NCBI RefSeq assembly: GCF_010501095.1
Contig: NZ_QVMP01000013.1
Span: 26,106 to 90,105, forward strand
Reading direction: 5' to 3'
Length of the DNA: 64,000 nucleotides
From: Dysgonomonas sp. 520
Lineage (GTDB): Bacteria > Bacteroidota > Bacteroidia > Bacteroidales > Dysgonomonadaceae
Positions within the stretch are counted from its first letter, which is position 1, and the number at the start of each line of letters is the position of its first letter. Below are positions 5,614 through 42,736 of the stretch, piece by piece. A program made the translations under genes and the position numbers. Below the pieces are notes generated by a model. That model did not search any database and had not been told where the DNA came from. It was given only the letters and a program-made list of their open reading frames with translations.

Positions 5614-5790
5614 GGGGCTGTGTCAAAAGTAAATTTCAATGTCTTTTTGTCATCCTGAACAAAGTGAAGGATCTGTTTTTAGAAAGTACAGATTCTTCGT
5701 TGCACTCAGAAACAACGTTCGAGGAGCGAAGGTGACTTAATGACAAAAATCAGTAACACTTTGATAGTGCAATCTTACTTTTGGAACATC
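5614..5790. repeat. MITE-like or REP-like repeat with inverted ends
   Basis: Left end TGTGTCAAAAGTAA and right end TTACTTTTGGAACA are imperfect inverted repeats. Between them is GTCATCCTGAACAAAGTGAAGGATCT and, about 90 bp on, GAGGAGCGAAGGTGACTTAATGACAAAA, which forms an inner inverted pair (GTCAT...ATGAC). The inner core resembles the core of the 139-bp elements elsewhere in this window, but the ends are different. There is no transposase, so it would be non-autonomous. Confidence 0.55.
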
Positions 5791-6176: not shown

Positions 6177-6725
6177 ATGGAAAAACAAGGCTACATATCC
6201 GAAATTAAAGAGCATACAGGGATAAATGTCAATCGTTGCTATCAGTGTGGAAAATGTTCCGCAGGTTGTGCCGTGACTGACGAGATGGATTATCCGCCTA
6301 GTATGGTAATGCGTATGCTGCAAACTAACGACGACGAAAACTACAAAAGTGTATTACAGTCGGAGTCTATATGGTTGTGTATTACTTGTCAGAATTGTGT
6401 GACTCGCTGTCCCATGCAAATTGATATTCCTCGATTGATGGATTATATGCGTGAACAGTCTTTACAGAAGAAAATGGTGAGTAAGAAAGCAAAAAATATA
6501 GTCTCTTTTCATAAATCATTTCTCGATCCTATCCGTTTCACGGGGCGTTCGTATGAGATCGGTCTTGTGGCAGGATATAAGATGCGTACGTTTAATTTAC
6601 TGCAAGATTTGAATGTTGCGCCAAGTATGTTTATGAAAGGCAAACTACCTATTCTACCCGAAAGGATAGAGGGGCGGAAACAAATAAAAGAGATCTTCGA
6701 TAAAACTAAAAAAGAAGATAAATAA
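6177..6725 (+). CDS. hdrC: Heterodisulfide reductase-like subunit C (HdrC), 2x[4Fe-4S]
   Basis: Small electron-carrying subunit, 182 aa, of an HdrABC-type complex. Two classical cluster motifs are visible: CYQCGKCSAGC near residue 20 and CITCQNCVTRCP near residue 70, each CxxCxxCxxxC. HdrC passes electrons between HdrA and the disulfide-reducing HdrB. It is the first gene of a seven-gene operon (hdrC-hdrB-hdrA-flxD-flxC-flxB-flxA), 78 bp ahead of hdrB. Alone it could be called a generic 4Fe-4S protein; the neighbours make HdrC the best call. Confidence 0.9.
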   Translation: MEKQGYISEIKEHTGINVNRCYQCGKCSAGCAVTDEMDYPPSMVMRMLQTNDDENYKSVLQSESIWLCITCQNCVTRCPMQIDIPRLMDYMREQSLQKKMVSKKAKNIVSFHKSFLDPIRFTGRSYEIGLVAGYKMRTFNLLQDLNVAPSMFMKGKLPILPERIEGRKQIKEIFDKTKKEDK

Positions 6726-6803
6726 AGGCCTCAGACCTACAACTACTTACAACTAAAAAAACGAGGTCGGTTGTTAGAACCGATTGATTAACAATATAGA
6801 ACA

Positions 6804-7649
6804 ATGAAAATAGGATTCTACCCGGGGTGTTCCCTGAAAGGAACTTCTTCCGAATATGCCCAATCTACATTGGCTTTAGCAAAGGCTTTCGATATTGATT
6901 TGGTAGAAATTACCGATTGGAATTGCTGTGGTGCAACTGCCGCTCACAATCTTAATCATGAATTGGCAACAGCCCTGCCTGCCAGAGTATTGGCACTGGC
7001 AGAGAAAGATGGTCTGAAGGAGATTGTTGTGCCATGCGCAGCCTGCTACAATCGTTTGAGTGTTACTCAGCATGAATTGAACGAGAATCAGGATCTGAAA
7101 AATAGAGTAGAGGAAATTCTTGAAATGCCTCTTAGCGGAAATCTTGAGATTCTGAATGTCATGCAGTTTATCGACAGGTATATTGCTGGTAAGATAGAGG
7201 GAAAAGTTGTTAAACCATTCAATCACAAAGTGGTATGCTATTATGGTTGTTTGCTTGTCCGTCCTCATGATGTATTGAAATTTGACCGTTTGGAAGACCC
7301 TCAGTCGATGGATATTCTGATGAAAAAAATTGGGGCAGATTCGATGGATTGGGGTTATAAGACAGAGTGTTGCGGAGCAGGATTTTCTGTTTCACGGACT
7401 GATATCGTGGGCAAACTTTCGGGTAAAATAGTAAAAGATGCTTACGACAGAGGTGCGCAAGCTATTATTGTAGCTTGCCCGATGTGCCAGTCGAATCTGG
7501 ATATGCGTCGTCCTCATATTAATAGTTATTTGAAAACCAAGATAGACATACCTGCAATGTATATAACGCAGGCAATAGGTTTGGCGGTTGGTGTGAGTAG
7601 AGAAGATTTAGGCTTGAAAAAACTGTTTGTAGCACCAACGTTCGCTTAA
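6804..7649 (+). CDS. hdrB: Heterodisulfide reductase-like subunit B (HdrB), CCG-domain protein
   Basis: Catalytic-type subunit with two complete CCG cysteine motifs, 281 aa. The first is C9-X31-CC-X35-CxxC (CCGATAAHN then PCAACYNRL), the spacing of the non-cubane [4Fe-4S] site of methanogen HdrB. The second is CYYGC...ECCGAGFS...ACPMCQSNL. Because both sites are intact, a true disulfide-type reductase is likely, rather than a degenerate CCG protein. The partner disulfide is unknown: heterodisulfide in methanogens, DsrC proposed in sulfate reducers, and no dsrC lies in this window. It is followed 21 bp on by hdrA. Confidence 0.92.
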   Translation: MKIGFYPGCSLKGTSSEYAQSTLALAKAFDIDLVEITDWNCCGATAAHNLNHELATALPARVLALAEKDGLKEIVVPCAACYNRLSVTQHELNENQDLKNRVEEILEMPLSGNLEILNVMQFIDRYIAGKIEGKVVKPFNHKVVCYYGCLLVRPHDVLKFDRLEDPQSMDILMKKIGADSMDWGYKTECCGAGFSVSRTDIVGKLSGKIVKDAYDRGAQAIIVACPMCQSNLDMRRPHINSYLKTKIDIPAMYITQAIGLAVGVSREDLGLKKLFVAPTFA

Positions 7650-7670
7650 TATTTTAAACAGAGAAAGAAT

Positions 7671-9674
7671 ATGTCAAAAATAGGAGTATTTGTTTGCCAT
7701 TGTGGTGAGAACATCAGTGCGACTGTCGATTGTAAGAAAGTTGCGGAAGAGGCTGCCAAGTTAACAGGCGTTGAAGTGAGTCTCGACTATAAGTATATGT
7801 GTTCCGATCCGGGTCAGACGATTATAAAAGAGGCAATAAAAGAAAAGGGTTTGACAGGGGTTGTGGTAGCTGCCTGCTCGCCACGTATGCACGAGCCAAC
7901 ATTCAGAAAAGCTTGTGCCGAAGCGGGATTGAATCCTTTTATGTGCGAAATGACAAACCTGCGCGAGCATTGTTCGTGGGTGCACGAAAAAAATGACCAA
8001 ACCACCGAAAAAGCTATTGATCTTGTTCGCATGTTGGTTGAAAAGACCAAACTGAACAAGCCTTTGAACGAGATAAAAGTTCCCGTTTCGAAGAAAGCAT
8101 TGGTTATTGGAGGTGGTATTGCCGGAATTCAGGCAAGTTTGGATATTGCGAATGCCGGTCATCAGGTTATTCTGGTTGAGAAAGAGGCTTCGATAGGAGG
8201 GCACATGTCTCAACTATCCGAAACATTCCCAACACTCGACTGCTCTCAATGTATCTTAACGCCTCGAATGGTGGAAGTGGCTCAGCATCCGAACATTACA
8301 CTTTATAACTATGCCGAATTGGAAAGCCTTGATGGTTTCATCGGAAACTTTAAGGCAACAATCCGCCTGAAAGCGAAAAGCGTTGACCCTAAAGCATGTA
8401 CGGGTTGCGGTGCTTGTTACAACAAATGCCCGAAGAAGAAGATCCCCAGTGAATTTAACGAAGGATTGGGTATGCGTACGGCTATCTATACGCCTTTCCC
8501 TCAGGCTGTTCCGAATAAGCCTGTGATTGATAAAGAGAATTGTAACTATTATAAGAACGGCAAATGTAAGATTTGCGAAAAAGTATGTCCTACGGGAGCA
8601 ATTGAATTTGACAAACCGGACGAATTTGTAACGGAAAATGTCGGAGCAATTGTTTTAGCAACAGGCTTTAATGTGCTGAAACCTGATTTCTTCCCGGAAT
8701 ATGGATATGGTCAGTTTAAGGATGTGATCACAGGTCTTCAGTTCGAAAGGCTTGCATCTGCATCAGGACCAACCTTAGGCGAAATTCGCCGTCCATCAGA
8801 TGGTAAAGTGCCTCAGAAAGTGGTGTTTATAGCTTGTGCAGGTTCTCGTGACCCGGCTAAAGGTATTCCATATTGTTCTAAAATATGTTGTATGTATACT
8901 GCCAAACATGCTATGCTTTATCAACATAAAGTGCATGGTGGAGAATCCACAGTTTTCTATATGGATATTCGTGCAGGAGGAAAGAACTATGAAGAGTTTG
9001 TTCGTCGTGCGATAGAAGAAGACGGAGCAAACTATGTTCGTGGACGTGTTGCACGTATCTATGAGAAAGACGGAAAACTGATAGTAAAAGGAGTGGATAC
9101 GTTGTTGGGCGCAAAACCTGTTGAAATAGAAGCAGATATGGTTGTTCTTGCTAGTGCGGGTGTTGCAAATTGCGGGGCAGAAGAATTAGCTCAAAAAATG
9201 CACGTATCGTACGACCCATATAAATTCTTTGCGGAGGCTCATCCCAAATTGAAGCCGGTAGAGACAAATACGGCAGGTATCTATTTGTGTGGTGCATGTC
9301 AGGCTCCGAAAGATATTCCCGATACGGTGGCAACGGCTTCCGGTGCTGCGGCTAAAGTGATTGGGTTGTTCTCGAAAGACGAACTGACTCGCGAGCCTTT
9401 GGTGGCTGTGGTAAACAGGATAGCCTCGCACGATGTATCTACTTGTGTAGGATGTTTTATGTGCCAGACGGCATGTCCTTATCAGGCAATTGAGCGGGAA
9501 GAGGTGAAGAACAGAGCCGGAGAAGTGATAAAGACAGTTGCCAGAGTGAATCCGGGACTGTGTCAGGGTTGTGGAACTTGTGTTTCCTTCTGTCGATCTA
9601 AGTCGATTGACATTCAAGGTTTCTCTAACGAGCAAATGTATGCCGAAGTATTGGCTGTTTTGAACACCCCTTAA
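7671..9674 (+). CDS. hdrA: Heterodisulfide reductase-like subunit A (HdrA), FAD protein with multiple [4Fe-4S]
   Basis: 667 aa, the length of single-copy methanogen-type HdrA. Domains in order: an N-terminal HdrA domain (GVFVCHCGENIS; CSPRMHEPTF), an FAD-binding Rossmann fold with GGGIAGIQASLDIANAG near residue 145, the HdrA signature GGHMSQLSETFPTLDCSQC, two central ferredoxin motifs (CTGCGACYNKCP and CKICEKVCP), a second half of the flavin fold, and C-terminal motifs CVGCFMCQTACP and CQGCGTCVSFCR. In characterised relatives HdrA carries the bifurcating flavin that splits electrons between ferredoxin and HdrB. The ferredoxin-like segments for handing electrons to ferredoxin are all present. 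Confidence 0.95.
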   Translation: MSKIGVFVCHCGENISATVDCKKVAEEAAKLTGVEVSLDYKYMCSDPGQTIIKEAIKEKGLTGVVVAACSPRMHEPTFRKACAEAGLNPFMCEMTNLREHCSWVHEKNDQTTEKAIDLVRMLVEKTKLNKPLNEIKVPVSKKALVIGGGIAGIQASLDIANAGHQVILVEKEASIGGHMSQLSETFPTLDCSQCILTPRMVEVAQHPNITLYNYAELESLDGFIGNFKATIRLKAKSVDPKACTGCGACYNKCPKKKIPSEFNEGLGMRTAIYTPFPQAVPNKPVIDKENCNYYKNGKCKICEKVCPTGAIEFDKPDEFVTENVGAIVLATGFNVLKPDFFPEYGYGQFKDVITGLQFERLASASGPTLGEIRRPSDGKVPQKVVFIACAGSRDPAKGIPYCSKICCMYTAKHAMLYQHKVHGGESTVFYMDIRAGGKNYEEFVRRAIEEDGANYVRGRVARIYEKDGKLIVKGVDTLLGAKPVEIEADMVVLASAGVANCGAEELAQKMHVSYDPYKFFAEAHPKLKPVETNTAGIYLCGACQAPKDIPDTVATASGAAAKVIGLFSKDELTREPLVAVVNRIASHDVSTCVGCFMCQTACPYQAIEREEVKNRAGEVIKTVARVNPGLCQGCGTCVSFCRSKSIDIQGFSNEQMYAEVLAVLNTP

Positions 9675-9780
9675 ATCTCCAAATGAAGGGGATTATATCT
9701 CTGGTTTAAGTGGAAAAAGTGAAATTATTATATATAAAACAAAATAAAAACCTCCCTTTTGGGGAGGATTGGAGGGGTTT
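9667..9780. other. Intra-operon spacer with two G/C hairpins
   Basis: The widest gap within the hdr-flx operon (106 nt after hdrA). It contains CCCCTT...AAGGGG (9667-9691, overlapping the hdrA stop) and CCTCCC-TTTTG-GGGAGG (9751-9767), then GGAGGGG just ahead of the flxD ATG. The second hairpin has no T tract, so it is not a standard terminator. It could be a repeat remnant or an mRNA processing or stability element that tunes flx relative to hdr. Confidence 0.45.
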
Positions 9781-10278
9781 ATGAATAACGAATTTGAACC
9801 AAAAGTAGTAGCTTTCGTGTGCAACTGGTGTACGTATGCCGGAGCCGACCTGACGGGAACCAGCCGCATAAAATATGCTTCGAATGTGAAGATTGTACGC
9901 TTCCCATGTACGGGGCGTATCGACTTTATGCTGTTGCTGAAAGCATTTGCAAATGGTGCGGATGGTATCATCGTTTCGGGTTGCCATCCCAATGACTGTC
10001 ACTATACATCAGGAAATTTCCATGCCCGTCGCCGTTGGATACTCTTCCGAAGTCTGCTCGATTTTATGGGAATTGATATCAATCGTATTCAATTTTCGTG
10101 GGTATCGGCTGCCGAGGGAGCTAAATGGGCAGATATTGTGAATAAGACAGTTACGAACATTCGGGAACTGGGTCCTTACATGGAATATCGTAGGGCGGCT
10201 AATTTTTTGGAAGCGAACGAAGAAGAGTTGACGAAAGAATTGGCTCGAAATAAAGAAGAGGAGGTGAAACATGGCTGA
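9781..10278 (+). CDS. flxD: FlxD / MvhD-like [2Fe-2S] electron-transfer subunit
   Basis: MvhD-family protein, the subunit that links HdrA to its electron donor module. The cysteine pattern is intact: CNWCTYAGAD at the N-terminus, FPCTGRID, and SGCHPNDCHYTSGNFHARRR. I start at ATG 9781 (MNNEFEPKVV, 165 aa) rather than the upstream TTG in the track, because GGAGGGG lies immediately 5' of this ATG. It overlaps the next gene by 8 nt, indicating translational coupling. In methanogens the partner is the Mvh hydrogenase; here the downstream genes encode a flavin oxidoreductase module instead. Confidence 0.9.
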   Translation: MNNEFEPKVVAFVCNWCTYAGADLTGTSRIKYASNVKIVRFPCTGRIDFMLLLKAFANGADGIIVSGCHPNDCHYTSGNFHARRRWILFRSLLDFMGIDINRIQFSWVSAAEGAKWADIVNKTVTNIRELGPYMEYRRAANFLEANEEELTKELARNKEEEVKHG

Positions 10279-11059
10279 ACTGAACAGTAAAGTAAAAGAG
10301 CTTTTTGAAAAAGACCTGATAGACATTTTCATCGGTTACGAAGAAGGAACACGAAACCCTCGTCCATATTTTGCTTATTCGGCGCAAGATGCAGATAATC
10401 TTGTGTTTAACGATAAGTGTCAAGGAAATCTGGCAGTTTATCTTACCCGTAAAGATTTAGTCGGAGGAAAACGGGTTGGTATTTCTGCATCCTATTTTGC
10501 ATTGAAAAGTATTTCGCAATTGTTCGACGAAAACCAACTGAAAGAAGATCTTCTTATCGTTTTAGGAATGAAAGAAGATGGTTCTATTCTGGAGTTTAAA
10601 GGATTGGACGAAATAAGAACATATTTGAGCGAAGCGAAAGCCCCATCGAAACAAAAAGATGATGAATTGTTGAAAGAATTGTCTGAAATGTCTCAGGCTG
10701 AACGTTGGCAGTTTTGGTCAGACGAATTATCCAAATGCTTCAAATGTTATGCTTGCCGTGCAGCTTGCCCGATGTGTTATTGTACAAAATGTATCATTGA
10801 GGTGAATCGCCCGCAATGGATACAGCCTTGGATTTCGACGCAGGGCAATATGGAATGGCAAATAAACCGTGTGATGCACATGGCCGGGCGTTGTTCCGAC
10901 TGTGGATCGTGTGGCGCGGCTTGTCCTATCGGAATCCCGATTCATTTGCTGACTCATATGATGACGAAAACAGTTGCAGCTAATTTCGGTGAATCGAACG
11001 AGCAAGGAAATGTGCTTTCTACATTTAAACCGGATGACAAAGAAAACTTTATATTGTAA
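10271..11059 (+). CDS. flxC: FlxC-like iron-sulfur protein of the Flx module
   Basis: 262 aa. The N-terminal about 140 residues have no Cys motif and resemble the non-cluster part of related Flx/AsrA-type proteins. The C-terminal half has CFKCYACRAACPMCYCTKC and CSDCGSCGAACPIGIP, giving two [4Fe-4S] sites. Its place between flxD and flxB, with an 8-nt overlap and a 6-nt gap, supports the FlxC role of relaying electrons inside the NAD(P)H-oxidising module. The FlxC/FlxB labels rest on order and domain type, so they could be exchanged. Confidence 0.8.
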   Translation: MAELNSKVKELFEKDLIDIFIGYEEGTRNPRPYFAYSAQDADNLVFNDKCQGNLAVYLTRKDLVGGKRVGISASYFALKSISQLFDENQLKEDLLIVLGMKEDGSILEFKGLDEIRTYLSEAKAPSKQKDDELLKELSEMSQAERWQFWSDELSKCFKCYACRAACPMCYCTKCIIEVNRPQWIQPWISTQGNMEWQINRVMHMAGRCSDCGSCGAACPIGIPIHLLTHMMTKTVAANFGESNEQGNVLSTFKPDDKENFIL

Positions 11060-11065
11060 GAAGTT

Positions 11066-12088
11066 ATGGAAAGAAAATATATATCCCAAGACTCATTAAA
11101 AACGTGGTTGAGCAAACTCAATGATGAGGGCAAACATATTTATGCACCTGTGGCAAAGGGCGATAAGACGGATTTTAAGCATATAAAATCGGTCGGCGAA
11201 ATTTCGATGGAGCATATTCAAACAACACAATCGGCTAAAGCAATTGCATTTCCTCGCACCGAAAAACTATTTTCCTACACAAAGAATAAGGGGGATGTTT
11301 CTCTGCAAGATTACGATTCGAGCGTGATTCCCGAAACAGTTGTTTTTGGTTTGCATCCTTGTGATGCAGCCGGATTTCGCCCGTTATCAAATATTTTCAA
11401 TTGGGGTACACCCGATACGCCTTTCAACGAAAGGATGAAACGTACCACGCTGATTGCCTTAAGCTGTTCGCAGTGCGACGAGGCGTGTTTTTGTACGTCA
11501 GTGAACGGAAGTCCCGGAAATACCGAGGGCAGCGATATTCTTCTTACAAAGATTAAAGACGGTTATTTGGTTGAAGTGGTAACCGATAAGGGCAAGGAAC
11601 TCGTATCTAAATATGAAAATCTATTTGACGCAGCACCGGAGGTAAACAAGGAAGAATTTTTAGCCAACGTTCCTCAAAAGTTCGGTTTGGAAGAACTGCA
11701 ACAGCGAATATCCAATATGTTCGAAAGCGAGGTCTGGAAACAGCAATCGGCTCGTTGTCTTGGCTGTGGAGCTTGTGCATTTGTTTGTCCTACATGTGCT
11801 TGTTTCGACATTCAGGAAGACAATAAGGGCAGTAAAGGAAGCCGGCTTCGCTGTTGGGATTCTTGCGGATTCTCCCTGTTTACTGTTCATACATCGGGGC
11901 ACAATCCTCGTGAAGTGCAGAGCCAGAGATGGAGGCAACGTTTGTTGCACAAATTTTCGTATATGCCCGAACGCCTTTCGGTAAGAGGCTGTACGGGTTG
12001 TGGACGCTGTTCAAGGGCTTGTCCGGTGGATATGAATATTGCGGAGCATCTTAGCTCAATTAGTAAATTGGAAAATGTAGAAAAATAA
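11066..12088 (+). CDS. flxB: FlxB-like 4Fe-4S dicluster protein (AsrA/hydrogenase-beta type)
   Basis: 340 aa, related to anaerobic sulfite reductase subunit A and hydrogenase beta-type iron-sulfur proteins. A conserved FGLHPCDAAGFRPL segment and a Cys-rich CSQCDEACFCTSVNGSPGN loop precede two C-terminal cluster motifs, CLGCGACAFVCPTCACF and CTGCGRCSRACPV. No siroheme-binding sulfite reductase C subunit follows, which argues against an Asr operon and for the Flx module. It is followed 24 bp on by the flavoprotein flxA. Confidence 0.82.
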   Translation: MERKYISQDSLKTWLSKLNDEGKHIYAPVAKGDKTDFKHIKSVGEISMEHIQTTQSAKAIAFPRTEKLFSYTKNKGDVSLQDYDSSVIPETVVFGLHPCDAAGFRPLSNIFNWGTPDTPFNERMKRTTLIALSCSQCDEACFCTSVNGSPGNTEGSDILLTKIKDGYLVEVVTDKGKELVSKYENLFDAAPEVNKEEFLANVPQKFGLEELQQRISNMFESEVWKQQSARCLGCGACAFVCPTCACFDIQEDNKGSKGSRLRCWDSCGFSLFTVHTSGHNPREVQSQRWRQRLLHKFSYMPERLSVRGCTGCGRCSRACPVDMNIAEHLSSISKLENVEK

Positions 12089-12112
12089 GTGTTAACCGAT
12101 AACTGATAACTG

Positions 12113-12952
12113 ATGACTGAAAAAAATATATATCTTCCTTATTTAATGACTGTTGAGAAAATAACTCAAGAGGCTCCGGGTGTGAAAACTCTGAGATTGA
12201 AATTTAAGGATGAAGAAGACGAGAAAAATTTTAGTTTCAAAGCAGGACAATTTGCCGAATACTCGGCTTTTGGCGAAGGGGAGTGTACTTTTTGTATAGC
12301 TTCCTCACCAACCCGTAAAGGCTATGTGGAATGTACTTTCCGTGAAGCAGGGCGGGTTACTTCGGCTTTGGCTAAATTGGAAGAAGGAGACACGATGGGT
12401 TTCAGAGGCCCTTATGGAAATACGTTTCCGATTGATGAATGGAAAGGAAAAAACTTGCTATTCATAGCCGGTGGTATCGCCTTGCCTCCTATGCGTTGCG
12501 TGATTTGGAATGCCTTGGATACACGCGAAAATTTCAAGGATATTAGCATCCTTTATGGTGCAAAATCGGTTGCCGATCTGGTTTATAAGCACGAATTGAA
12601 AGAGTGGGACGAAATGCCTGACGTGAAACTGGTAACAACCGTTGACCCGGGTGGCGAAACTCCCGACTGGAAAGGAGAGGTTGGCTTTGTTCCTTCCGTA
12701 TTGGAAAAAATGAACCCTTCTCCCGAAAATACGATTGCAATTGTTTGCGGGCCTCCCGTAATGATAAAGTTTACTTTTCCTGTACTTGAAAAGCTCGGTT
12801 TTAAATCGGAGAATATCTACACAACTCTCGAAAACCGCATGAAGTGTGGGGTAGGGAAGTGTGGGCGTTGCAATGTCGGTAATAAATATGTCTGTAAAGA
12901 CGGTCCTGTGTTCTCGAAAGTGGAACTGGAATCACTACCTGCCGAATATTAA
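12113..12952 (+). CDS. flxA: FlxA-like FAD/NAD(P)H oxidoreductase (AsrB/PyrK type)
   Basis: 279 aa of the ferredoxin-NADP reductase superfamily. An N-terminal flavin-binding barrel (KAGQFAEYSAFG; TFCIASSPT) is followed by an NAD(P)-binding domain (LLFIAGGIALPPMR) and a C-terminal PyrK-type [2Fe-2S] site, CGVGKCGRCNVGNKYVC. It would oxidise NADH or NADPH and feed electrons through FlxBC and FlxD to HdrA. AsrB or dihydroorotate dehydrogenase electron-transfer subunit are alternative names for the fold, but the operon context favours FlxA. It is the last gene before a terminator. Confidence 0.88.
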   Translation: MTEKNIYLPYLMTVEKITQEAPGVKTLRLKFKDEEDEKNFSFKAGQFAEYSAFGEGECTFCIASSPTRKGYVECTFREAGRVTSALAKLEEGDTMGFRGPYGNTFPIDEWKGKNLLFIAGGIALPPMRCVIWNALDTRENFKDISILYGAKSVADLVYKHELKEWDEMPDVKLVTTVDPGGETPDWKGEVGFVPSVLEKMNPSPENTIAIVCGPPVMIKFTFPVLEKLGFKSENIYTTLENRMKCGVGKCGRCNVGNKYVCKDGPVFSKVELESLPAEY

Positions 12953-12978: not shown

Positions 12979-13012
12979 CCTGGCTTAATCTTTTGTAAGT
13001 CAGGTTTTTTTT
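12979..13012 (+). terminator. Terminator of the hdr-flx operon
   Basis: Hairpin CCTGGCTTA...TAAGTCAGG followed by eight T residues, 26 bp after the flxA stop. It also lies at the 3' end of the convergent DUF4276 gene. Confidence 0.85.
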
Positions 13013-13724
13013 ATTTCGACATTCTCATTTTGTCCAAAATCGACAACAAATGATTGAGGGCGGGAATATCGTATCTGACATTGTTTTCCAGATTGTTGAA
13101 ATCGAGTTTGTGCACCAGTTTTTGAACTTGCCAGTATTTTTTCGAATAATTGCGTCCAACAAGGCGGTATATTCTATCTAAATCCTGAGACGGATGCTTC
13201 CTTTTCATTGCATTTTCGTGATAAGGGTCGAAGCCTAAATGACGTTTAATGAAATGACTAGTCAGCCTTTTATCTACCTTTTGCAAGTGGTTTGATTCGG
13301 CAAGAAACCAAGTTTCAATTTCTTGAACCACAACAATGAAGTCTATTTCTTCGTGATATTTATGGAACTTCTTAGGAATAAACTTCAAGCCATGCTCCAA
13401 CCGTTGCAAATCTTCTGTGGGTAAGGGGTAGAGGTCACGCATCCCGATAATGTAGCTGTAACCCGAATTAGCAAGAGAACCGACATTTTCCATCACTTCC
13501 GATTTTACCCTGTTGTCGGCTCCGCAGTCGTAAATCAAAGCTGTGTATTTGGGGTTCAGAGGGATGTTTTTCTTTTTTGCAATTTCGTATCTGGGCACGC
13601 TGGAGCCACCTCTCGACCGTTTCAGGATGATGGACACATTGTCTCGTCCCAGAGCCTCTTCCACAAGGCTGGTTACGAAAATCTGCTCAGTTTGTCCTTC
13701 TACAAATATTGCAATCTTTTTCAT
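13011..13724 (-). CDS. TOPRIM-like DUF4276-family protein (putative nuclease partner)
   Basis: 237 aa. The start MKKIAIFVEGQTEQIF has the TOPRIM acidic residue in the VEGxTE motif (E9), and YDCGAD (D66, D70) supplies the second acidic motif. This is the pattern of DUF4276/TOPRIM proteins, related to the nuclease domain of OLD-family proteins. It starts one base after the stop of the AAA ATPase gene (TAA-G-ATG), so the pair is translationally coupled. Similar ATPase-plus-TOPRIM pairs (for example PARIS, RloAB-like and split OLD systems) act in phage defence. The family call is good; the function is inferred. Confidence 0.75.
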   Translation of the reverse strand: MKKIAIFVEGQTEQIFVTSLVEEALGRDNVSIILKRSRGGSSVPRYEIAKKKNIPLNPKYTALIYDCGADNRVKSEVMENVGSLANSGYSYIIGMRDLYPLPTEDLQRLEHGLKFIPKKFHKYHEEIDFIVVVQEIETWFLAESNHLQKVDKRLTSHFIKRHLGFDPYHENAMKRKHPSQDLDRIYRLVGRNYSKKYWQVQKLVHKLDFNNLENNVRYDIPALNHLLSILDKMRMSK

Positions 13725-13725
13725 C

Positions 13726-14865
13726 TTAATCTTCCTGATCTATCGAAAATCCGTTCATATAAAATTGAGATGCCAGAAAGTCGAAGTTACTCATTCCGGT
13801 ATACTTGAAATCGTCAAAGTTTTGTTTCGAGTTGTAGTAGTTATAAAATATCGCTTTATTTGGCTTACGCTCTATTACAGACCAATATTCAAGAGGAATG
13901 GCGTTCATAATATAACGATCGTTGGTGGTGAAAATTACCTGAATTTTCGAATCTTTCAATTTCTTTATAATCAGGTCGATCAGTCCCTTCGAACGATCAA
14001 AATCCAATCCTTCGCCCAAATCGTCAATCAAAACGCAGAAAGAAACATTGTTGAGTAGAGCCATATTTAGTTGAACGATAAACGTCAATGCCCTGAACAT
14101 TCCCTGCGACATTTCCAACTGTCCTGTTTTTTCCTCAAGATCAAGCTCTTTCACATAAATTCCAATGCCTTTCGTGCTCTCTTGAATGCCAATGGAGTCG
14201 ATAGGATAGTCCAGAAACTTCATGTCTTCGATTATTTTCTGGTCGAAATTCTTGCCATACATTTTTTTTGCGGCATATACCATGTTCAGCACATCTTTGC
14301 GATTGGGCAATGTATGTTCCACATTTTTATCCAGTTCGTCCATGCTGTTTGCCAGTCTCTTTTTCTCGACCTGATTGGTGAAATTGGCTTTTTGCAGCGA
14401 ATATCCCCAAAGGTAAAAACTGCCTAAGTAGGGAAATTCGGGATTGGTATGATTGGATACGACAAGTTTGTTGTCATTTTCATCGAAATCTATAAATCCG
14501 TTTTTTTCTTCCGAATATATTTTGCGTTTTTTTCTGTCGAATTTACATTCTTTATTGATAAGTATCTGTTCCTCAATAACAACACTGTCCTTTACATGCA
14601 GGATGTACTCGTTTTTATCTCCGTCGTTATCAAAAACCAAATGATAGAAACTATCATTGAAAGGAATCTTTTCAATTTTTTTATCCAATGCCAGAAGTTC
14701 GGCAATCTCTCTGATTACCCCTAGAGTTCGGCTCTTTCCGGCGGCGTTTTTGCCTACAATCAGATTGATATTTCCGAATTGAACAAAATCATCGTTCCGG
14801 TCTTCAATCGACCACTCTTTAGGCTGACCCTCAAGCCTTTTGTATCTGAATGCTTTTAGTATCAT
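13726..14865 (-). CDS. AAA family ATPase (AAA15/AAA_21, SMC/ABC-like)
   Basis: 379 aa. Walker A is GKNAAGKS at residues 38-45. An ABC-type signature-like segment LEMSQGMFRAL and Walker B with D-loop (CVLIDDLGEGLDF) come late in the protein, followed by VIFTTND at the switch position. The large insertion between the Walker motifs is typical of AAA15/OLD-like ATPases. Such ATPases commonly sense a trigger and control a partner effector, here probably the coupled TOPRIM protein. A housekeeping role is possible, but no housekeeping family matches this pair. Confidence 0.8.
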   Translation of the reverse strand: MILKAFRYKRLEGQPKEWSIEDRNDDFVQFGNINLIVGKNAAGKSRTLGVIREIAELLALDKKIEKIPFNDSFYHLVFDNDGDKNEYILHVKDSVVIEEQILINKECKFDRKKRKIYSEEKNGFIDFDENDNKLVVSNHTNPEFPYLGSFYLWGYSLQKANFTNQVEKKRLANSMDELDKNVEHTLPNRKDVLNMVYAAKKMYGKNFDQKIIEDMKFLDYPIDSIGIQESTKGIGIYVKELDLEEKTGQLEMSQGMFRALTFIVQLNMALLNNVSFCVLIDDLGEGLDFDRSKGLIDLIIKKLKDSKIQVIFTTNDRYIMNAIPLEYWSVIERKPNKAIFYNYYNSKQNFDDFKYTGMSNFDFLASQFYMNGFSIDQED

Positions 14866-19118: not shown

Positions 19119-19301
19119 TTAAGCTTTATGTGCTTCAACACCAGTAGCGTTTAATTTGCGTGCTTTCACTTTTACAATTTTCCCATTTTCGGAGAAGATA
19201 AGGTTACCATCTTCTTTTTGCTTCTTTTCGATTAATCGAGTGTAAGATAAGTTAAGACCTACTAATAATTTATTACGCAGAGCTATTTCCTTACGATTCA
19301 T
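19119..19301 (-). CDS. 60-aa basic protein overlapping the zeta-toxin-like gene
   Basis: MNRKEIALRNKLLVGLNLSYTRLIEKK... is a small, mostly helical, Lys-rich protein. It overlaps the 3' end of the zeta-like kinase gene by 4 nt (ATGA), good evidence that it is a real coupled gene. No family is recognised. It could be the antitoxin or an accessory protein for the kinase, although antitoxins more often precede toxins. Confidence 0.6.
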   Translation of the reverse strand: MNRKEIALRNKLLVGLNLSYTRLIEKKQKEDGNLIFSENGKIVKVKARKLNATGVEAHKA

Positions 19302-19864
19302 ACGTTTTTTATTTGGTTAAAAATCTCTTTATCATGTTCCTCTATCACTTCTTCTTTTTTTCCTTCAACAATAATTTTGAAGGGGTTTTCAGAGTTATTC
19401 ACTACCATCCAATAATCTGAAATAGGAGTGTATAAAGAAAACAAATTTTGAATTCCCGATTTATATCTCCGCCTGATCACTTCTTTGGGCACATTGTGCC
19501 CGCCAGTCCTGACCCTGTCTTCGACTCTTTTAATAGCCAATTCCGGAGAACTGAGCCAAAAGTATAACAAAGTTACGAAATAACCTAATTTTTGCGCCTT
19601 TTTAATAAACGATGCATAAGATTTGGTTGCGAGGGTTGTTTCGATGGCAAAATCTTGTTTTTGCCTCAACATCTCTTCCATTCTCATTATCATTATGCGT
19701 CCGGCGTCAATAGAGGCTCTCTCCGGTTGAAAGGGAGAAAGTCCTCTGGCTATTTCGTCGGCATTGATAAACTCTTTGCAATCCAACATTTCGGGCAAAA
19801 TGGTATATGAGGCAGTCGTTTTGCCTGCACCATTGCACCCTGATATTATGTATAGATTTGGCAT
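19298..19864 (-). CDS. Zeta-toxin-like P-loop kinase
   Basis: 188 aa. The start MPNLYIISGCNGAGKTTASY gives a P-loop, followed by FINADEIARGLSPFQPE, the zeta-family substrate-binding segment with its catalytic-type Asp, and FAIETTLATKSY as in zeta/PezT enzymes. Zeta toxins phosphorylate UDP-N-acetylamino sugars and block cell-wall synthesis; chromosomal Bacteroidetes homologues are often uncharacterised. It sits between purC (42 bp upstream) and the small ORF it overlaps. The family is likely; toxicity is inferred. Confidence 0.8.
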   Translation of the reverse strand: MPNLYIISGCNGAGKTTASYTILPEMLDCKEFINADEIARGLSPFQPERASIDAGRIMIMRMEEMLRQKQDFAIETTLATKSYASFIKKAQKLGYFVTLLYFWLSSPELAIKRVEDRVRTGGHNVPKEVIRRRYKSGIQNLFSLYTPISDYWMVVNNSENPFKIIVEGKKEEVIEEHDKEIFNQIKNV

Positions 19865-37088: not shown

Positions 37089-38252
37089 TTAACGTCCCAT
37101 CAAACTTCTCAAACCATCCATGTCGAACGACAATGAGAAACGAATTGTCTGGTCTAGCGGATTATTTTGAGCCGTAGATATCAAATAAGCAGCATCCAGT
37201 TGGAAAACACTCATCTTGAAACCGGCTCCGGCAGTAAAGTATTGACGATTACCTTTTTGTGGATTTTCGTAACTATAACCTCCTCTTATCGAGAATTTGT
37301 TATCGTACGTATATTCTGCTCCTAGCGACCAGTTTATTTCTTTCAATTCTTCCTTAAATCCGCCCGGCGCATCGCCAAAAGACTTAAAGATACCCGAAAT
37401 GGAACTCATATCGCTATATCTTTCTTGAGCTTGTGTTGAGCTCTCCCCATCCTTCACGTGATAGGTAGGTACAAGCAGCTTATTTATATCGGCGCTGAAT
37501 GCCAATGTGTTGTAGTCATCCAACGGATATGTTAAAGATGCTCCAAGACGCATATTTGCAGGCAAGAAGTAATAGTTTCCTCCACCGTCGTTCGATATTT
37601 TAGAACCAATATTGGATATATTGAAACCTAAACCCAGAAGACACTCCGCATTTCCGAGCATCACATAAGACTCGTTGTATCCTGAAATATCTGCCGCCCA
37701 CGCATTTCCTGCGGTGGAAACATCATTTGCCTGACGAGTTGTATAATCGGCACGCAAGAAGCGTAAAGCCACACTACCCGAAAACGTTTCTGTCAACTTA
37801 CGTGAATATGCCACGTCGAAAGCCATCTCGTATGGTGCTACTTTATATTCAAAGTCTCCGTTACCATCTCTTATATCAACATCACCAATAGAGAAATAAC
37901 GGATCGAGGCACTTATCGCCTGATTGTCGTCATAACCAAACTTATAGAATCCCGTTGCATAAACAAGGGCAATATCATCTACAAGTTTGCTCAACCAAGG
38001 GGTGTACGACAACGACGCTCCCGCCTTGCTTGTATGAAACGCATATTTGGCAGGATTCCAATGTTGCGAATATATATCCGGCAAAGTGGCTGCTCCGATA
38101 TCACCCATACCGCCACCTCTGGCATCCGGTGCTATGGTCATAGAAGGCATGGCGGCATTAACAGGATTTCTCTCGTCGTCCTCAGCCAACACTGTTAACC
38201 CGCAAAAAACAAAAACTCCGCTTATAATTAATTTTTTCAAAGATATTTCCAT
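37089..38252 (-). CDS. porV: Type IX secretion outer-membrane shuttle protein PorV (LptO)
   Basis: 387 aa. Signal peptide, then a beta-barrel of the FadL/PorV kind: SMTIAPDARGGGMGDIGAATLPDIYSQHWNPAKYAF and aromatic C-terminal strands ending IRFSLSFDMDGLRSLMGR. PorV collects T9SS cargo from the translocon and presents it to the PorU sortase. Adjacent to porU, as in other Bacteroidetes, which confirms the assignment. Confidence 0.93.
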   Translation of the reverse strand: MEISLKKLIISGVFVFCGLTVLAEDDERNPVNAAMPSMTIAPDARGGGMGDIGAATLPDIYSQHWNPAKYAFHTSKAGASLSYTPWLSKLVDDIALVYATGFYKFGYDDNQAISASIRYFSIGDVDIRDGNGDFEYKVAPYEMAFDVAYSRKLTETFSGSVALRFLRADYTTRQANDVSTAGNAWAADISGYNESYVMLGNAECLLGLGFNISNIGSKISNDGGGNYYFLPANMRLGASLTYPLDDYNTLAFSADINKLLVPTYHVKDGESSTQAQERYSDMSSISGIFKSFGDAPGGFKEELKEINWSLGAEYTYDNKFSIRGGYSYENPQKGNRQYFTAGAGFKMSVFQLDAAYLISTAQNNPLDQTIRFSLSFDMDGLRSLMGR

Positions 38253-38310
38253 TCTCCTTTTTTAATAAAATAGATAGTTGTATGTCATTAATAACTCGAA
38301 GATACAAGAT

Positions 38311-41300
38311 TTATTGCCCGTGAATTATTAATTTTTCTGATTTTTCGCTCCTGACAACTCCATCTACACTGAATATAGCCTTGTAAGTATATATACCGGG
38401 CATAAGCCTCAAACCATTATTCGCTTTCAAGTCCCAATTGTATGTATAATGCTTCATCATGTCGGCAGTTGCACTTTTTTCGTGTGTCCATTGCAGCACC
38501 CCGTTGGCTGAATACACTTCGTATCTGATCGAAATTTCTTCGTCCGTATAATCTGATGTAAACACAAATTTAGACTCTGTATCCACCACATTATCGGAAA
38601 CAGAAAAATGATGTGTTCCGGAACCTCCCTTCCTCACGATAAAGTTTACCGATTGAGATGCCAGATTGCCCCACACATCGTAAACATTAAACCTCAACGT
38701 ATGTTCACCTTCTGTCAATTCCGGTATCTGGAATTTCACATACCCCGAGTGAGGAGACGTACCTTTTGGCACAAATGACGAGGTCAAACTGTATTCTGTA
38801 TTGCTATCCAGCAACAGAGACATATCTTGTCCTGCCTGACTGGACAGGTTGATGGCTGTTTGGTCTGAAACCTCGGCATAGAAGACCGGTCTGTGTCCGA
38901 CTTTATCGCCCGAACGGAAAGTTTCTTTATCCAGATACAAATTCGATATCACGGGTGCAACATCTTCCAGATTGGTATAAGATTCAGCTTGAGCTATTTT
39001 ATATCCTCTAAAATATCCATGTATATCTATGTCTTTTTCAGGACTATATGCATAAAAACTCATTTTTCCGTTTCCTCCTGTGGTGTAAACATTAGCCGGG
39101 CTGGTAAATGATATTTCAAATTCACCATTCACTATTTGGTCTTTGCCCATATATATTTTATTCACATAGTCTTTGTAATCTAAGATGGCATCCTTGTTGC
39201 CGGTGTCTACTTTAGTGTTTCCTCTTGTTTTCAGGTCTTGTTCGTTATCGAAAACTATAGATTCCAACATTCCATTGAAATCGGTTGCCTTTTGTCCATT
39301 CCGGTCAACAATTTGCCCCTTCACCGTATTGGTTTCCAAACAATTGATATTTACAATGCCATCCGATACCTTCTTGCCGTTTATTTCCGTAACCTGCACC
39401 GAATAATCATCGGTAGGCAAATTAAGCCTCAAGGCAGGATCTCCCACCAATATAAATCTCAGTTTGTTTTCATTCGTACTCAGTTTATATTTAGTATTTT
39501 CCGTTTTAGCATATCTCATAATATCTCCCAACCTGAGGGCTTTTCCTTTTTCCCTGTTGAAGATATATTCATAAGTGGCCAGATTCATCAGGTTGTTGTC
39601 TACCGAATAAACTGTCCGGGAGGTAGAAAACAATGCTATTGCTCCCCCGTTCGGGTTGAGCAAGGCCATTTCGCCTCCTGTTCTGATATCCGAATCCAGA
39701 GAACAAAAAGTACAGGTTGCTGTAAGCCATACCGGCAGTCTCGAATTATTCAGATTCACTACATCGTTGTATGTCAACAATCCGTCAGTCCATCCTATTT
39801 CAGAACCATGCCCAACAAAACTCAAGATAAGGGTTCCTTCATCTATTTTTTTATAAAACTCTTTTCTCGCATCCGGAATTCTAGTTCTTTCGTTGAACGA
39901 AAATCGCTCATACATATCTTCATATATTTTATTTGTTATCATCACCGGATGATGCAATCTTAGTGTATCGGCATAATTGTTCGACTGAGCCATGTGTTCC
40001 CGCTCACTTGTTACAGAGTTTTTTCCGGCAGCATCGTCGGCAGCAAAAGATACCATATTCTGCCATATACCTCTGTCTTCATTTTTCATATACCTCTCAA
40101 TCTTGTTGACAACTCCTTCCGCCTCAGTTAGGGTTCTTGCGGGAATCCGTCCTACGGCGACATTCAGTTTTGCATTTTTCAGCACTGTGCCCGAATTGTC
40201 GTCCATAAATCCAAAGTAATCTTCAACCAAATATGACGATATAAGATGAAGGCTGCTCTCGGTTTGATATGTAAGCAAAAGGGCATCTTTATCTTCCTGC
40301 GTCCATGCATCTCTCACAAATCGGTTGTCGTAGGTTCCATCGCCAAACAACAGCAAGTATTTTGGTCTTTCGTCGTCGTTGTCACCTGCCCTGTCATAAA
40401 ACATTTTCACAAAACGACGATAGGCTGTTGCATCTGCATTTCCCGACGAAAACTCGTTATATATTTTTTCGGGTGAAACAACAGTACATTTCAATCCTGA
40501 ATCTTTTTCATGCAAACGAGCCAATCGCTCGGCCTGTTCCTGCAATTTCGGCTGTGCGATAATTACCATATCTGTTTGTGGTAGCGCATGTAAGTTCTGG
40601 TTTTCTATTTTACCCAGAATCTCAGGCTTTGGTATTTCTTTCGTCATATCCACTAAGGCATACTCCCGAATAGTTGTATTGGGTGCAACAAAAGACATAT
40701 CCGATCCGGATATGCTTGTTTGCATTTTCTTCACAACAGTGTTGTCCGTTACGTCGAAAACCAATACACTCGGATTTGCTTCGGATATATTAAAACTAAC
40801 CTGAGGATAAAAATCTTTGCTTCTGAATAAAACGACACCTCCGTATGGTTTCAAAGTCCGTTTATAATTTATTCTGATATAATTAAGATGAACATGTTTA
40901 TCTTCATCTTCATTCGTAGATGGCGTATACTTCAAGCCGATTGTAGAGTTTTCTGTCAAGGCGGTAGTAACTATTCCTTTGGTTCCACTATTCACATTCT
41001 GGGCATACGCATAAGAGTCAGATAGTTTGTTGATTACTTCGGTCTTAACCTGGGTTCCGTTGACCGCTATCTCCATTTTTGAGCCATCTTTGTAGGGTCT
41101 GGCTATGAAGTTATATCCGATTTTTGCCGGCGCTCCGCTAACAATGCCTGTCAAAGGAAATTTTAATGAAAAATTGCGTCGTGCTTTTAAATCTTCTCCA
41201 TAAAGCTCATATCCCGATTGAGATATGCTTATCGAATCTTTTTCGTGCAGAACATAGTCGTCGAAGCTAGTTAATGTAACGGAAGGATTTCCTGTATATA

Positions 41301-41799
41301 ATTCGGCATTTTTGACAAGGTTGGCTCCACTGTTATCTTCTGTTATAAAATAATATGCATCGGACGAATAAGGGTTTTGCTTGTGTTCAAACTCACCTTT
41401 CTGATTACTATACGTCCACTTCATTGTTCCCCTCGCATAAAATAATATATAATCGCCCGGACCGAATGAAGCTGCATCGGAAGAACTCATCCATATCGAA
41501 ATTTTAGGTAAGTCGTCAATATATTTGTTCTGAAAATTTTCGTCCAATGTCCAACCTCCATAACCATATATCTGAACATCTTTGGGATTGGTGAGTCCTA
41601 TTTTGATAAGGTCTTCGTAAGTCAGCTTGTATACTCCGGTTTCCGAAATCTTCACCTTATACCAATTGCCTTTCGACAATACAGAGTTTGCCGCATACCT
41701 ACTGCCATCATTTATGCCTTGTCCCGAAGCATAATTGCATACTGCAAAAAGAACTGTGATTAGTAGTATTTTCTTAAACATATATCTATATAATTTCAA
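38311..41799 (-). CDS. porU: Type IX secretion sortase PorU, C25-type (copy 1)
   Basis: 1162 aa. PorU is a gingipain-like (C25) enzyme that removes the C-terminal sorting domain of T9SS cargo and attaches it to A-type LPS on the cell surface. Signal peptide at the N-terminus; the conserved first domain includes NSVLSKGNWYKVKISETGVYKLTYEDL. The catalytic pair is intact: His664 in FVGHGSE and Cys696 in TATCTFCS. A C-terminal CTD-like beta domain ends LMPGIYTYKAIFSVDGVVRSEKSEKLIIHG. It lies 58 bp ahead of porV and is the canonical copy by position. Confidence 0.93.
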   Translation of the reverse strand: MKLYRYMFKKILLITVLFAVCNYASGQGINDGSRYAANSVLSKGNWYKVKISETGVYKLTYEDLIKIGLTNPKDVQIYGYGGWTLDENFQNKYIDDLPKISIWMSSSDAASFGPGDYILFYARGTMKWTYSNQKGEFEHKQNPYSSDAYYFITEDNSGANLVKNAELYTGNPSVTLTSFDDYVLHEKDSISISQSGYELYGEDLKARRNFSLKFPLTGIVSGAPAKIGYNFIARPYKDGSKMEIAVNGTQVKTEVINKLSDSYAYAQNVNSGTKGIVTTALTENSTIGLKYTPSTNEDEDKHVHLNYIRINYKRTLKPYGGVVLFRSKDFYPQVSFNISEANPSVLVFDVTDNTVVKKMQTSISGSDMSFVAPNTTIREYALVDMTKEIPKPEILGKIENQNLHALPQTDMVIIAQPKLQEQAERLARLHEKDSGLKCTVVSPEKIYNEFSSGNADATAYRRFVKMFYDRAGDNDDERPKYLLLFGDGTYDNRFVRDAWTQEDKDALLLTYQTESSLHLISSYLVEDYFGFMDDNSGTVLKNAKLNVAVGRIPARTLTEAEGVVNKIERYMKNEDRGIWQNMVSFAADDAAGKNSVTSEREHMAQSNNYADTLRLHHPVMITNKIYEDMYERFSFNERTRIPDARKEFYKKIDEGTLILSFVGHGSEIGWTDGLLTYNDVVNLNNSRLPVWLTATCTFCSLDSDIRTGGEMALLNPNGGAIALFSTSRTVYSVDNNLMNLATYEYIFNREKGKALRLGDIMRYAKTENTKYKLSTNENKLRFILVGDPALRLNLPTDDYSVQVTEINGKKVSDGIVNINCLETNTVKGQIVDRNGQKATDFNGMLESIVFDNEQDLKTRGNTKVDTGNKDAILDYKDYVNKIYMGKDQIVNGEFEISFTSPANVYTTGGNGKMSFYAYSPEKDIDIHGYFRGYKIAQAESYTNLEDVAPVISNLYLDKETFRSGDKVGHRPVFYAEVSDQTAINLSSQAGQDMSLLLDSNTEYSLTSSFVPKGTSPHSGYVKFQIPELTEGEHTLRFNVYDVWGNLASQSVNFIVRKGGSGTHHFSVSDNVVDTESKFVFTSDYTDEEISIRYEVYSANGVLQWTHEKSATADMMKHYTYNWDLKANNGLRLMPGIYTYKAIFSVDGVVRSEKSEKLIIHGQ

Positions 41800-41816
41800 T
41801 ATTTCAATAAAATAGT

Positions 41817-42455
41817 TTAAAGTATCCGGAAATCGAGCAGTTTCCTATCTCCCATTGTTCCTATGATGTGATCGTTTATGCTTATTTCATCATTTCCGGC
41901 AGATACGTCACCCACCAGAATCAAGTCTCCTATTTTCAATGTCACATATTGGCTTATAAACGAAATTAAGTAATCTATGCCGGAAAGCATCTCTTCCGCT
42001 TCCATCCTTTGCACAATGGTTCCGTTTATATCCAAACTGACAGAGCCTGCCGGATATTGCCTGATTTCTTCTTTTGAGATAAAATCTCCTATAACGGCAG
42101 AATTATCAAATGCCACAGACAAATCTATCGGTAAACGGTCCGACTCTAATGTTTCTTTTATGTCTTTCGCAACCAAATCCAGTCCTATTGTCAATTCTTC
42201 ATAATAACGGTGAGCAAACCTTTCGGCGATGTTTTTTCCCAAACGGTTTATTTTCACCACAAGTTTAGCTTTGTAACATATATTCGACGAAAAATCAGGT
42301 ATGTAGAACGGCCTTCCATTACATAACAGTGATGAATCGGGCTTAAAACATATTGATGGAAAACAGCTGCTTTCTGTTGCTTGCTCTCTATCTTCTTCCG
42401 CTATTTTATCCTTATTGTATAGTTTATTACAGTTTTCGACACAAATGATCTTCAT
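41817..42455 (-). CDS. Fumarylacetoacetate hydrolase (FAH) family protein
   Basis: 212 aa, matching the short FAH fold: FYIPDFSSNICYKAKLVVKINRLGKNI, then SVAFDNSAVIGDFISKEEI and LKIGDLILVGDVSAG near the end. FAH-fold enzymes are metal-dependent hydrolases, isomerases or decarboxylases of oxo-acids. Several expected acidic metal ligands are not obvious here, so activity is uncertain. It lies between the two porU genes, 17 bp ahead of copy 1, and is probably cotranscribed with it. Confidence 0.8.
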   Translation of the reverse strand: MKIICVENCNKLYNKDKIAEEDREQATESSCFPSICFKPDSSLLCNGRPFYIPDFSSNICYKAKLVVKINRLGKNIAERFAHRYYEELTIGLDLVAKDIKETLESDRLPIDLSVAFDNSAVIGDFISKEEIRQYPAGSVSLDINGTIVQRMEAEEMLSGIDYLISFISQYVTLKIGDLILVGDVSAGNDEISINDHIIGTMGDRKLLDFRIL

Positions 42456-42736
42456 TCCAACTTAATACAGTTAACTTTCTCGTTATGCTTTTATGTAATC
42501 AGAATCAACTTGTTAGCTTCATTTTGCTTTGCCGATTTTCAGTTTGAGGAACGAAAGTGACTCAACGACAAAATACATAAACAAATTACAACTATTGATT
42601 CACATAAACGACAAATATAACAATATTTTTCATTTTATTTATCTTTCGTTTACACGATGAATTAAAATTAATAGTGATAAACTCCAAATTTAACTTTGTT
42701 TGAGGCGGGTATCCCTCATACATATTCTGTCATGAT
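42456..42736. other. Intergenic region between FAH gene and second porU
   Basis: 281 bp, AT-rich, no ORF of note. Around 42540-42575 is TTTGAGGAACGAAAGTGACTCAACGACAAAAT, a degenerate piece of the repeat core also seen near 5700 and 46950. A promoter for the FAH-porU-porV-ispF-mnmD run should lie here, but no exact TAnnTTTG was found close to the start. Confidence 0.5.

What the first reader, a model, noticed from the sequence alone, without database searches (positions are those of the whole stretch)
6177..12952. Complete HdrABC-FlxABCD-type electron-bifurcation operon in a Bacteroidetes genome
Seen: seven adjacent same-strand genes in the order hdrC-hdrB-hdrA-flxD-flxC-flxB-flxA, ended by a terminator, with every cluster motif intact, including the two CCG sites of HdrB (C-X31-CC-X35-CxxC). 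Known: in methanogens Hdr pairs with the Mvh hydrogenase; in sulfate reducers Flx/Flox proteins replace it and NADH is the proposed donor. Inference: this organism oxidises NAD(P)H with ferredoxin and a disulfide as paired acceptors. The host phylum and the missing DsrC or CoM/CoB partner leave the physiological disulfide open, which is the most interesting question in the window.
Basis: partly seen in the sequence, partly recalled or inferred. Interest (0 to 1): 0.75.

Follow-up and report, generated by a model that had tools for sequence, protein, structure and literature searches.

The report
HdrABC–FlxABCD bifurcation operon in Dysgonomonas
This is an intact seven-gene operon for a known type of electron-splitting enzyme (HdrABC–FlxABCD) in a gut-type Bacteroidota bacterium; the enzyme kind is not new, but the genome lacks DsrC, the partner proposed in sulfate reducers, so the disulfide it acts on is unknown.

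Summary
hdrC-hdrB-hdrA-flxD-flxC-flxB-flxA lie on the + strand at 6177-12952, followed by a terminator-like hairpin. Every cysteine conserved in relatives is present. The host's closest named relatives are Dysgonomonas species. The same gene order recurs in Dysgonomonas, Bacteroides cellulosilyticus, Alistipes, Segatella, Ignavibacteria, Chlorobi, Planctomycetes and Aminicenantes, and the HdrA tree largely follows taxonomy: an old Bacteroidota trait of a known kind, not a recent import from sulfate reducers.

Three additions. (1) The genome (99.65% complete) has no DsrC, no siroheme sulfite reductase, no [FeFe] or clear [NiFe] hydrogenase and no second CCG protein, but has Rnf. DsrC is missing from 33 of 42 Flx-Hdr genomes searched, including all named gut isolates; the literature already noted this gap for a Syntrophomonas. 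(2) FlxC is built like FdhB/ElpB, the electron-donor-arm subunit next to MvhD in methanogen Hdr complexes, but has lost the KGCD motif of its N-terminal domain. (3) Four genomes with split genes still keep hdrA, and flxA where checked, even 1-Mb Azobacteroides.

Donor (NADH or NADPH), direction and physiological disulfide stay untested. Ordinary thiols are too low in potential for the proposed forward direction at standard values.

The parts
6177..6725 (+). hdrC: 182 aa, two [4Fe-4S] motifs (C21/24/27/31, C68/71/74/78)
   Evidence: Cys invariant in 59/59 rows
6804..7649 (+). hdrB: 281 aa, two CCG domains for non-cubane [4Fe-4S] clusters; the only CCG-domain protein found in the genome; extra invariant Cys145 (CYYGC)
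   Evidence: predicted fold matches solved HdrB, TM 0.90-0.92
7671..9674 (+). hdrA: 667 aa, FAD domain (the bifurcating flavin, by homology) with inserted and C-terminal ferredoxin domains
   Evidence: full length vs methanogen HdrA, E about 1e-204; tree
9781..10278 (+). flxD (MvhD/FlpD family): [2Fe-2S] connector between FlxC and HdrA; a TTG start at 9769 is also possible
   Evidence: (PF02662, 165 bits); five invariant Cys
10271..11059 (+). flxC: 262 aa, short FdhB/ElpB-like bridging subunit; C-terminal 11-Cys dicluster domain kept, N-terminal KGCD motif lost
11066..12088 (+). flxB: 340 aa, iron-sulfur subunit of the sulfhydrogenase beta / AsrA type
   Evidence: (9nez_B, E 5.5e-48)
12113..12952 (+). 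flxA: 279 aa, FAD/NAD(P)H diaphorase with C-terminal [2Fe-2S]
   Evidence: (9nez_C, E 3.5e-66)
12979..13004 (+). terminator-like hairpin followed by T-run
   Evidence: consensus match only

Best explanation
The operon makes a soluble HdrABC-FlxABCD complex that links three redox pools: NAD(P)H, ferredoxin and a thiol/disulfide. FlxA takes hydride from NAD(P)H. Electrons pass through FlxB and the FdhB-like bridge FlxC to the [2Fe-2S] of FlxD and on to the FAD of HdrA. There the pair is split: one electron goes through HdrC to the two CCG clusters of HdrB and a disulfide, the other to ferredoxin. The reaction can in principle run backwards. Steps inferred by homology: cofactors, subunit order and bifurcation. 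Not shown: donor (NADH or NADPH), direction in vivo and identity of the disulfide. With DsrC absent the partner must be another thiol compound or protein. If the complex runs forward, the ferredoxin produced could be spent by the Rnf complex found in the same genome, so that oxidation of NAD(P)H by the disulfide would drive ion pumping.
For: All seven subunits have the family's domains and all conserved cysteines. Gene order is kept across several phyla. HdrA and HdrB align end to end with solved bifurcating Hdr. FlxC best matches, in sequence and fold, FdhB and ElpB, which lie in the electron-donor arm with MvhD/ElpC in Hdr complexes (PMC12350162). FlxA/FlxB match the gamma/beta pair of sulfhydrogenase I. 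Genomes with split genes still hold both halves. Genetic work on homologous clusters ties them to NADH recycling (PMC12125255). One RnfC, with downstream RnfD-like and upstream ApbE-like sequence as I read it, is in the genome.
Against: No activity measured here. The proposed acceptor DsrC is absent. With textbook potentials (NADH -320 mV, ferredoxin -500 mV), forward bifurcation needs a disulfide above about -140 mV; thioredoxin, glutathione and cystine (about -270 to -220 mV, from memory) would favour the reverse. Neighbouring genes give no hint of a partner.
Confidence: 0.75

Rival explanations
1. Same complex, but it mainly runs in reverse in this fermenter: reduced ferredoxin (for example from pyruvate:ferredoxin oxidoreductase) plus a dithiol reduce NAD(P)+, feeding reduced fermentation products.
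For: In D. vulgaris the cluster is reported to run in reverse during fermentation (PMC12125255). Standard potentials of common thiols favour this direction. The genome has a 1195-aa ORF that I read as a fused PFOR-type protein (weak side hit).
Against: Rnf can already pass ferredoxin electrons to NAD+ while conserving energy. A steady supply of dithiol and an oxidant to regenerate the disulfide would be needed; neither was identified.
Confidence: 0.35
2. The HdrB side does not reduce a free disulfide but passes electrons to another acceptor enzyme (as HdrABC-MvhD-MetVF is thought to do for methylene-THF in acetogens, from memory) or to a protein-bound thiol unrelated to DsrC.
For: No DsrC in 33 of 42 flx-hdr genomes. 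No conserved disulfide-handling neighbour.
Against: No metF/metV or other acceptor gene is conserved next to the operon. Both CCG clusters are invariant and HdrB folds like heterodisulfide-reducing HdrB.
Confidence: 0.15
3. The complex supplies reduced ferredoxin to nitrogenase.
For: Azobacteroides (1-Mb genome), D. capnocytophagoides and three others have both flx-hdr and NifH.
Against: The window's genome and 17 more of the 23 flx-hdr genomes searched have only weak, partial hits to the NifH family, none of nitrogenase strength.
Confidence: 0.05
4. FlxAB(C) belong to an anaerobic sulfite reductase (Asr) or a sulfhydrogenase, and the Hdr genes sit beside them by chance.
For: FlxA/B are related to AsrB/A and to sulfhydrogenase gamma/beta.
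Against: No siroheme reductase domain and no hydrogenase above cut-off in the genome. The seven-gene order is conserved across phyla. Asr model scores are far below their cut-offs.
Confidence: 0.02

Closest known systems
HdrABC-FlxABCD of Nitratidesulfovibrio (Desulfovibrio) vulgaris and Bilophila wadsworthia
   Same: Same seven components; Bilophila's cluster is written in the same order, hdrCBA-flxDCBA (PMC12125255).
   Different: Those hosts are sulfidogenic sulfur-respiring bacteria and the proposed D. vulgaris partner is DsrC; the window's genome has no DsrC or sulfite reductase. I had no D. vulgaris sequence to align.
Flx-Hdr of DsrC-less Syntrophomonas BUT1
   Same: Full cluster without DsrC; authors say an alternative, unknown thiol-disulfide carrier would be needed (PMC6687939).
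   Different: Butyrate-oxidising syntroph discussed there as Rnf-lacking with a trimeric hydrogenase; the window's genome has Rnf and lacks [FeFe] hydrogenase.
Fdh-Hdr / Elp-Hdr complexes of methanogens (7bkb, 8rvu) and Mvh-Hdr (5odc)
   Same: HdrABC core and MvhD; FlxC has the FdhB/ElpB fold.
   Different: Donor is F420H2, formate or H2, not NAD(P)H; FdhB/ElpB bind FAD and ElpB four clusters, whereas window FlxC has lost the N-terminal KGCD motif; acceptor there is CoM-S-S-CoB.
Sulfhydrogenase I beta/gamma (9nez)
   Same: FlxB and FlxA align end to end.
   Different: No hydrogenase catalytic subunit in the operon and none above cut-off in the genome.

Membership tests
HdrABC-FlxABCD | All seven genes adjacent: hdrC, hdrB, hdrA, flxD, flxC, flxB, flxA | tested here: met
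   same order in nearly all of the named loci that are long enough
HdrABC-FlxABCD | HdrB with two intact CCG sites | tested here: met
   C9/41/42/78/81 and C149/189/190/225/228, invariant in relatives; fold match
HdrABC-FlxABCD | HdrA with FAD domain and ferredoxin domains | tested here: met
HdrABC-FlxABCD | FlxA with FAD, NAD(P)H and [2Fe-2S] domains | tested here: met
   PF00970, PF00175, PF10418; C245/250/253/261
HdrABC-FlxABCD | FlxC/FlxD module linking the diaphorase to HdrA | tested here: met
   PF02662; FlxC fold like FdhB/ElpB
HdrABC-FlxABCD | DsrC (proposed partner in sulfate reducers) encoded in the genome | tested here: not met
   This is a proposed partner in one lineage, not a subunit or a defining feature of the complex, so it does not exclude membership
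HdrABC-FlxABCD | NADH-dependent ferredoxin plus disulfide reduction | not testable with these tools
   needs purified complex
Asr anaerobic sulfite reductase | AsrC siroheme subunit and AsrA/B above curated cut-offs | tested here: not met
   AsrA 149 of 323 bits, AsrB 194 of 289 bits; no NIR_SIR domain in genome
PyrK / NfnB | FlxA groups with PyrK/Nfn subunits | tested here: not met
   FlxA lies with Flx of other phyla, apart from two PyrK-like proteins including one from the genome itself
Mvh-Hdr (hydrogenase) | [NiFe] hydrogenase catalytic subunit | tested here: not met
   no hit above cut-off in own genome

The most novel reading that the evidence does not exclude
Gut Bacteroidota carry an ancient, DsrC-independent branch of Flx-Hdr that uses an as yet unknown high-potential disulfide (or non-disulfide) partner, coupled through ferredoxin to Rnf; its FlxC is a stripped FdhB-like protein that lost its own flavin or cluster site when the NAD(P)H module FlxAB became the donor.
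Probability: 0.4. Interest if true: 0.6.

Novelty: new member of a known kind. Interest (0 to 1): 0.32.

Why it matters
Electron bifurcation by Hdr complexes is understood only where the disulfide is known (CoM-S-S-CoB) or proposed (DsrC). Culturable gut isolates such as Bacteroides cellulosilyticus, Alistipes and Dysgonomonas keep the whole complex without DsrC, so they are a practical place to find the missing thiol partner. The finding itself is an ordinary, well-conserved member of the family.

Tried and rejected
FlpD (PF02662) counts alone overstate Flx-Hdr in the order: 102 of 294 genomes hit, but most of the best-scoring hits belong to other Hdr types with HdrA about 33-44% identical. 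A conserved neighbour that might be the disulfide partner was sought in 80 loci and in named Dysgonomonas, Bacteroides, Alistipes and Segatella loci: none. In some bog Bacteroidales and a Marinifilum MAG the operon lies near Complex I genes, and in a few others near a DHOD-like gene, but not here. Nitrogenase supply was tested and dropped as a general role. Apparent losses of hdrA or flxA in Azobacteroides and others are gene splits, not losses. The extra invariant Cys145 of HdrB is also in most other bacterial HdrB examined, so I do not read it as a special partner site.

Full report
What is there. Seven same-strand ORFs at 6177-12952 encode HdrC, HdrB, HdrA, FlxD (MvhD type), FlxC, FlxB and FlxA. 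flxD and flxC overlap by 8 bases; a hairpin with a T-run follows flxA. HdrB has C-X31-CC-X35-CxxC at 9-81 and C-X39-CC-X34-CxxC at 149-228. In alignments with about 58-72 relatives per subunit the window lacks none of the conserved cysteines.

Where it comes from. The window is part of a 3.9-Mb genome, 99.65% complete. The closest named operons are those of Dysgonomonas sp. HGC4, D. macrotermitis and D. capnocytophagoides (FlxC 70-76%, HdrA 90-92%). The host is therefore Dysgonomonas or close to it (inference). In its family 10 of 101 genomes have a strong FlxC match. The HdrA tree places the window with Dysgonomonas, inside a mostly Bacteroidota group, with Chlorobi apart.

How common it is. 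The same order occurs in Bacteroides, Alistipes, Segatella, termite-gut Bacteroidales, Ignavibacteria, Chlorobi, Planctomycetes, Aminicenantes and Acidobacteria. In four genomes the genes are split (L041, L060, L080, L082), but hdrA is still present elsewhere or alongside, and flxA too where it was missing next door, even in Candidatus Azobacteroides with about 1 Mb. That persistence is good evidence that the two halves work together.

Architecture. HdrA and HdrB match the solved methanogen subunits end to end, and the HdrB model superposes on them with TM 0.90-0.92. FlxA and FlxB match the gamma and beta subunits of sulfhydrogenase I. FlxC is the most informative: its sequence and predicted fold (mean pLDDT 86) match FdhB of the Fdh-Hdr complex and ElpB of the Elp-Hdr complex. 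In those complexes this subunit oxidises F420H2 at an FAD and passes electrons toward MvhD/ElpC and HdrA (PMC12350162). Window FlxC keeps the C-terminal dicluster domain but has lost the KGCD motif (seen in 7bkb_E in the alignment) and further cysteines found in long-form FlxC of some other bacteria. Apart from the two long-form reference rows (L019, L031), only one of the other 38 aligned rows (L110) keeps them. A reasonable reading is that FlxC is a bridge that gave up its own donor site when the FlxAB diaphorase took over; the evolutionary direction is inference.

Partner question. DsrC is absent from the genome and from 33 of 42 Flx-Hdr genomes, including all named gut isolates; it was found in some Chlorobi, an Ignavibacteria MAG and a few environmental Bacteroidota. 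There is no siroheme sulfite reductase, no [FeFe] hydrogenase, no [NiFe] hydrogenase above cut-off and no other CCG protein. One RnfC is present, and the sequence around it reads as an rnf operon (my reading). NifH of nitrogenase strength is absent here. Neighbouring genes are not conserved, even within Dysgonomonas.

Energetics (textbook values, from memory). Forward bifurcation needs a disulfide potential above 2E(NADH) - E(ferredoxin): about -140 mV with -320 and -500 mV, or about -220 mV with ferredoxin at -420 mV. Common thiols lie at -270 to -220 mV. So either the partner is unusually oxidising, or the complex works backwards much of the time.

Literature. The cluster is described as widespread in anaerobes and tied to NADH recycling (Ramos et al. 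2015, read only through citing papers; PMC12125255). PMC6687939 states that a DsrC-less host needs an unknown thiol carrier. Flx in Dysgonomonas was not discussed in the papers I could search.

Verdict. Correctly observed, correctly named, ordinary in kind. The unknown partner is a genuine open question but not one first posed by this locus.

Noticed in passing
window 13011-14865, - strand: An AAA_21 ATPase next to a DUF4276 protein, directly after the operon; weak to moderate matches to AbiL, AriA and HEC-01 defence models. Looks like an anti-phage pair; not next to the operon in the other Dysgonomonas examined.
   Followed up: partly
window 37092-46177, - strand: Two large Peptidase_C25 (gingipain/PorU-like) proteins with a PorV homologue: type IX secretion genes.
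   Followed up: no
window 19298-19864, - strand: Zeta-toxin-type kinase ORF; antitoxin not looked for.
   Followed up: no
window 5649-5674, + strand: GTCATCCTGAACAAAGTGAAGGATCT between the creatininase-like gene and hdrC resembles a dispersed Bacteroidota intergenic repeat (from memory); single copy in this window.
   Followed up: partly
L019:617-1450, L031:1947-2804, L110:10001-10861: A long FlxC form with KGCD and extra Cys motifs exists in some other genomes of the order and in an Ignavibacteria MAG; the two FlxC types could be mapped against donor type.
   Followed up: partly
L056, L057, L060, L072, L077: In some bog and marine Bacteroidales the flx or hdr-flx genes lie beside Complex I (nuo) genes.
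   Followed up: no
L174, L178 and other FlpD hits: Many genomes of the order carry other HdrA/MvhD-type clusters without Flx, HdrA about 33-44% identical; their role is unknown to me.
   Followed up: no
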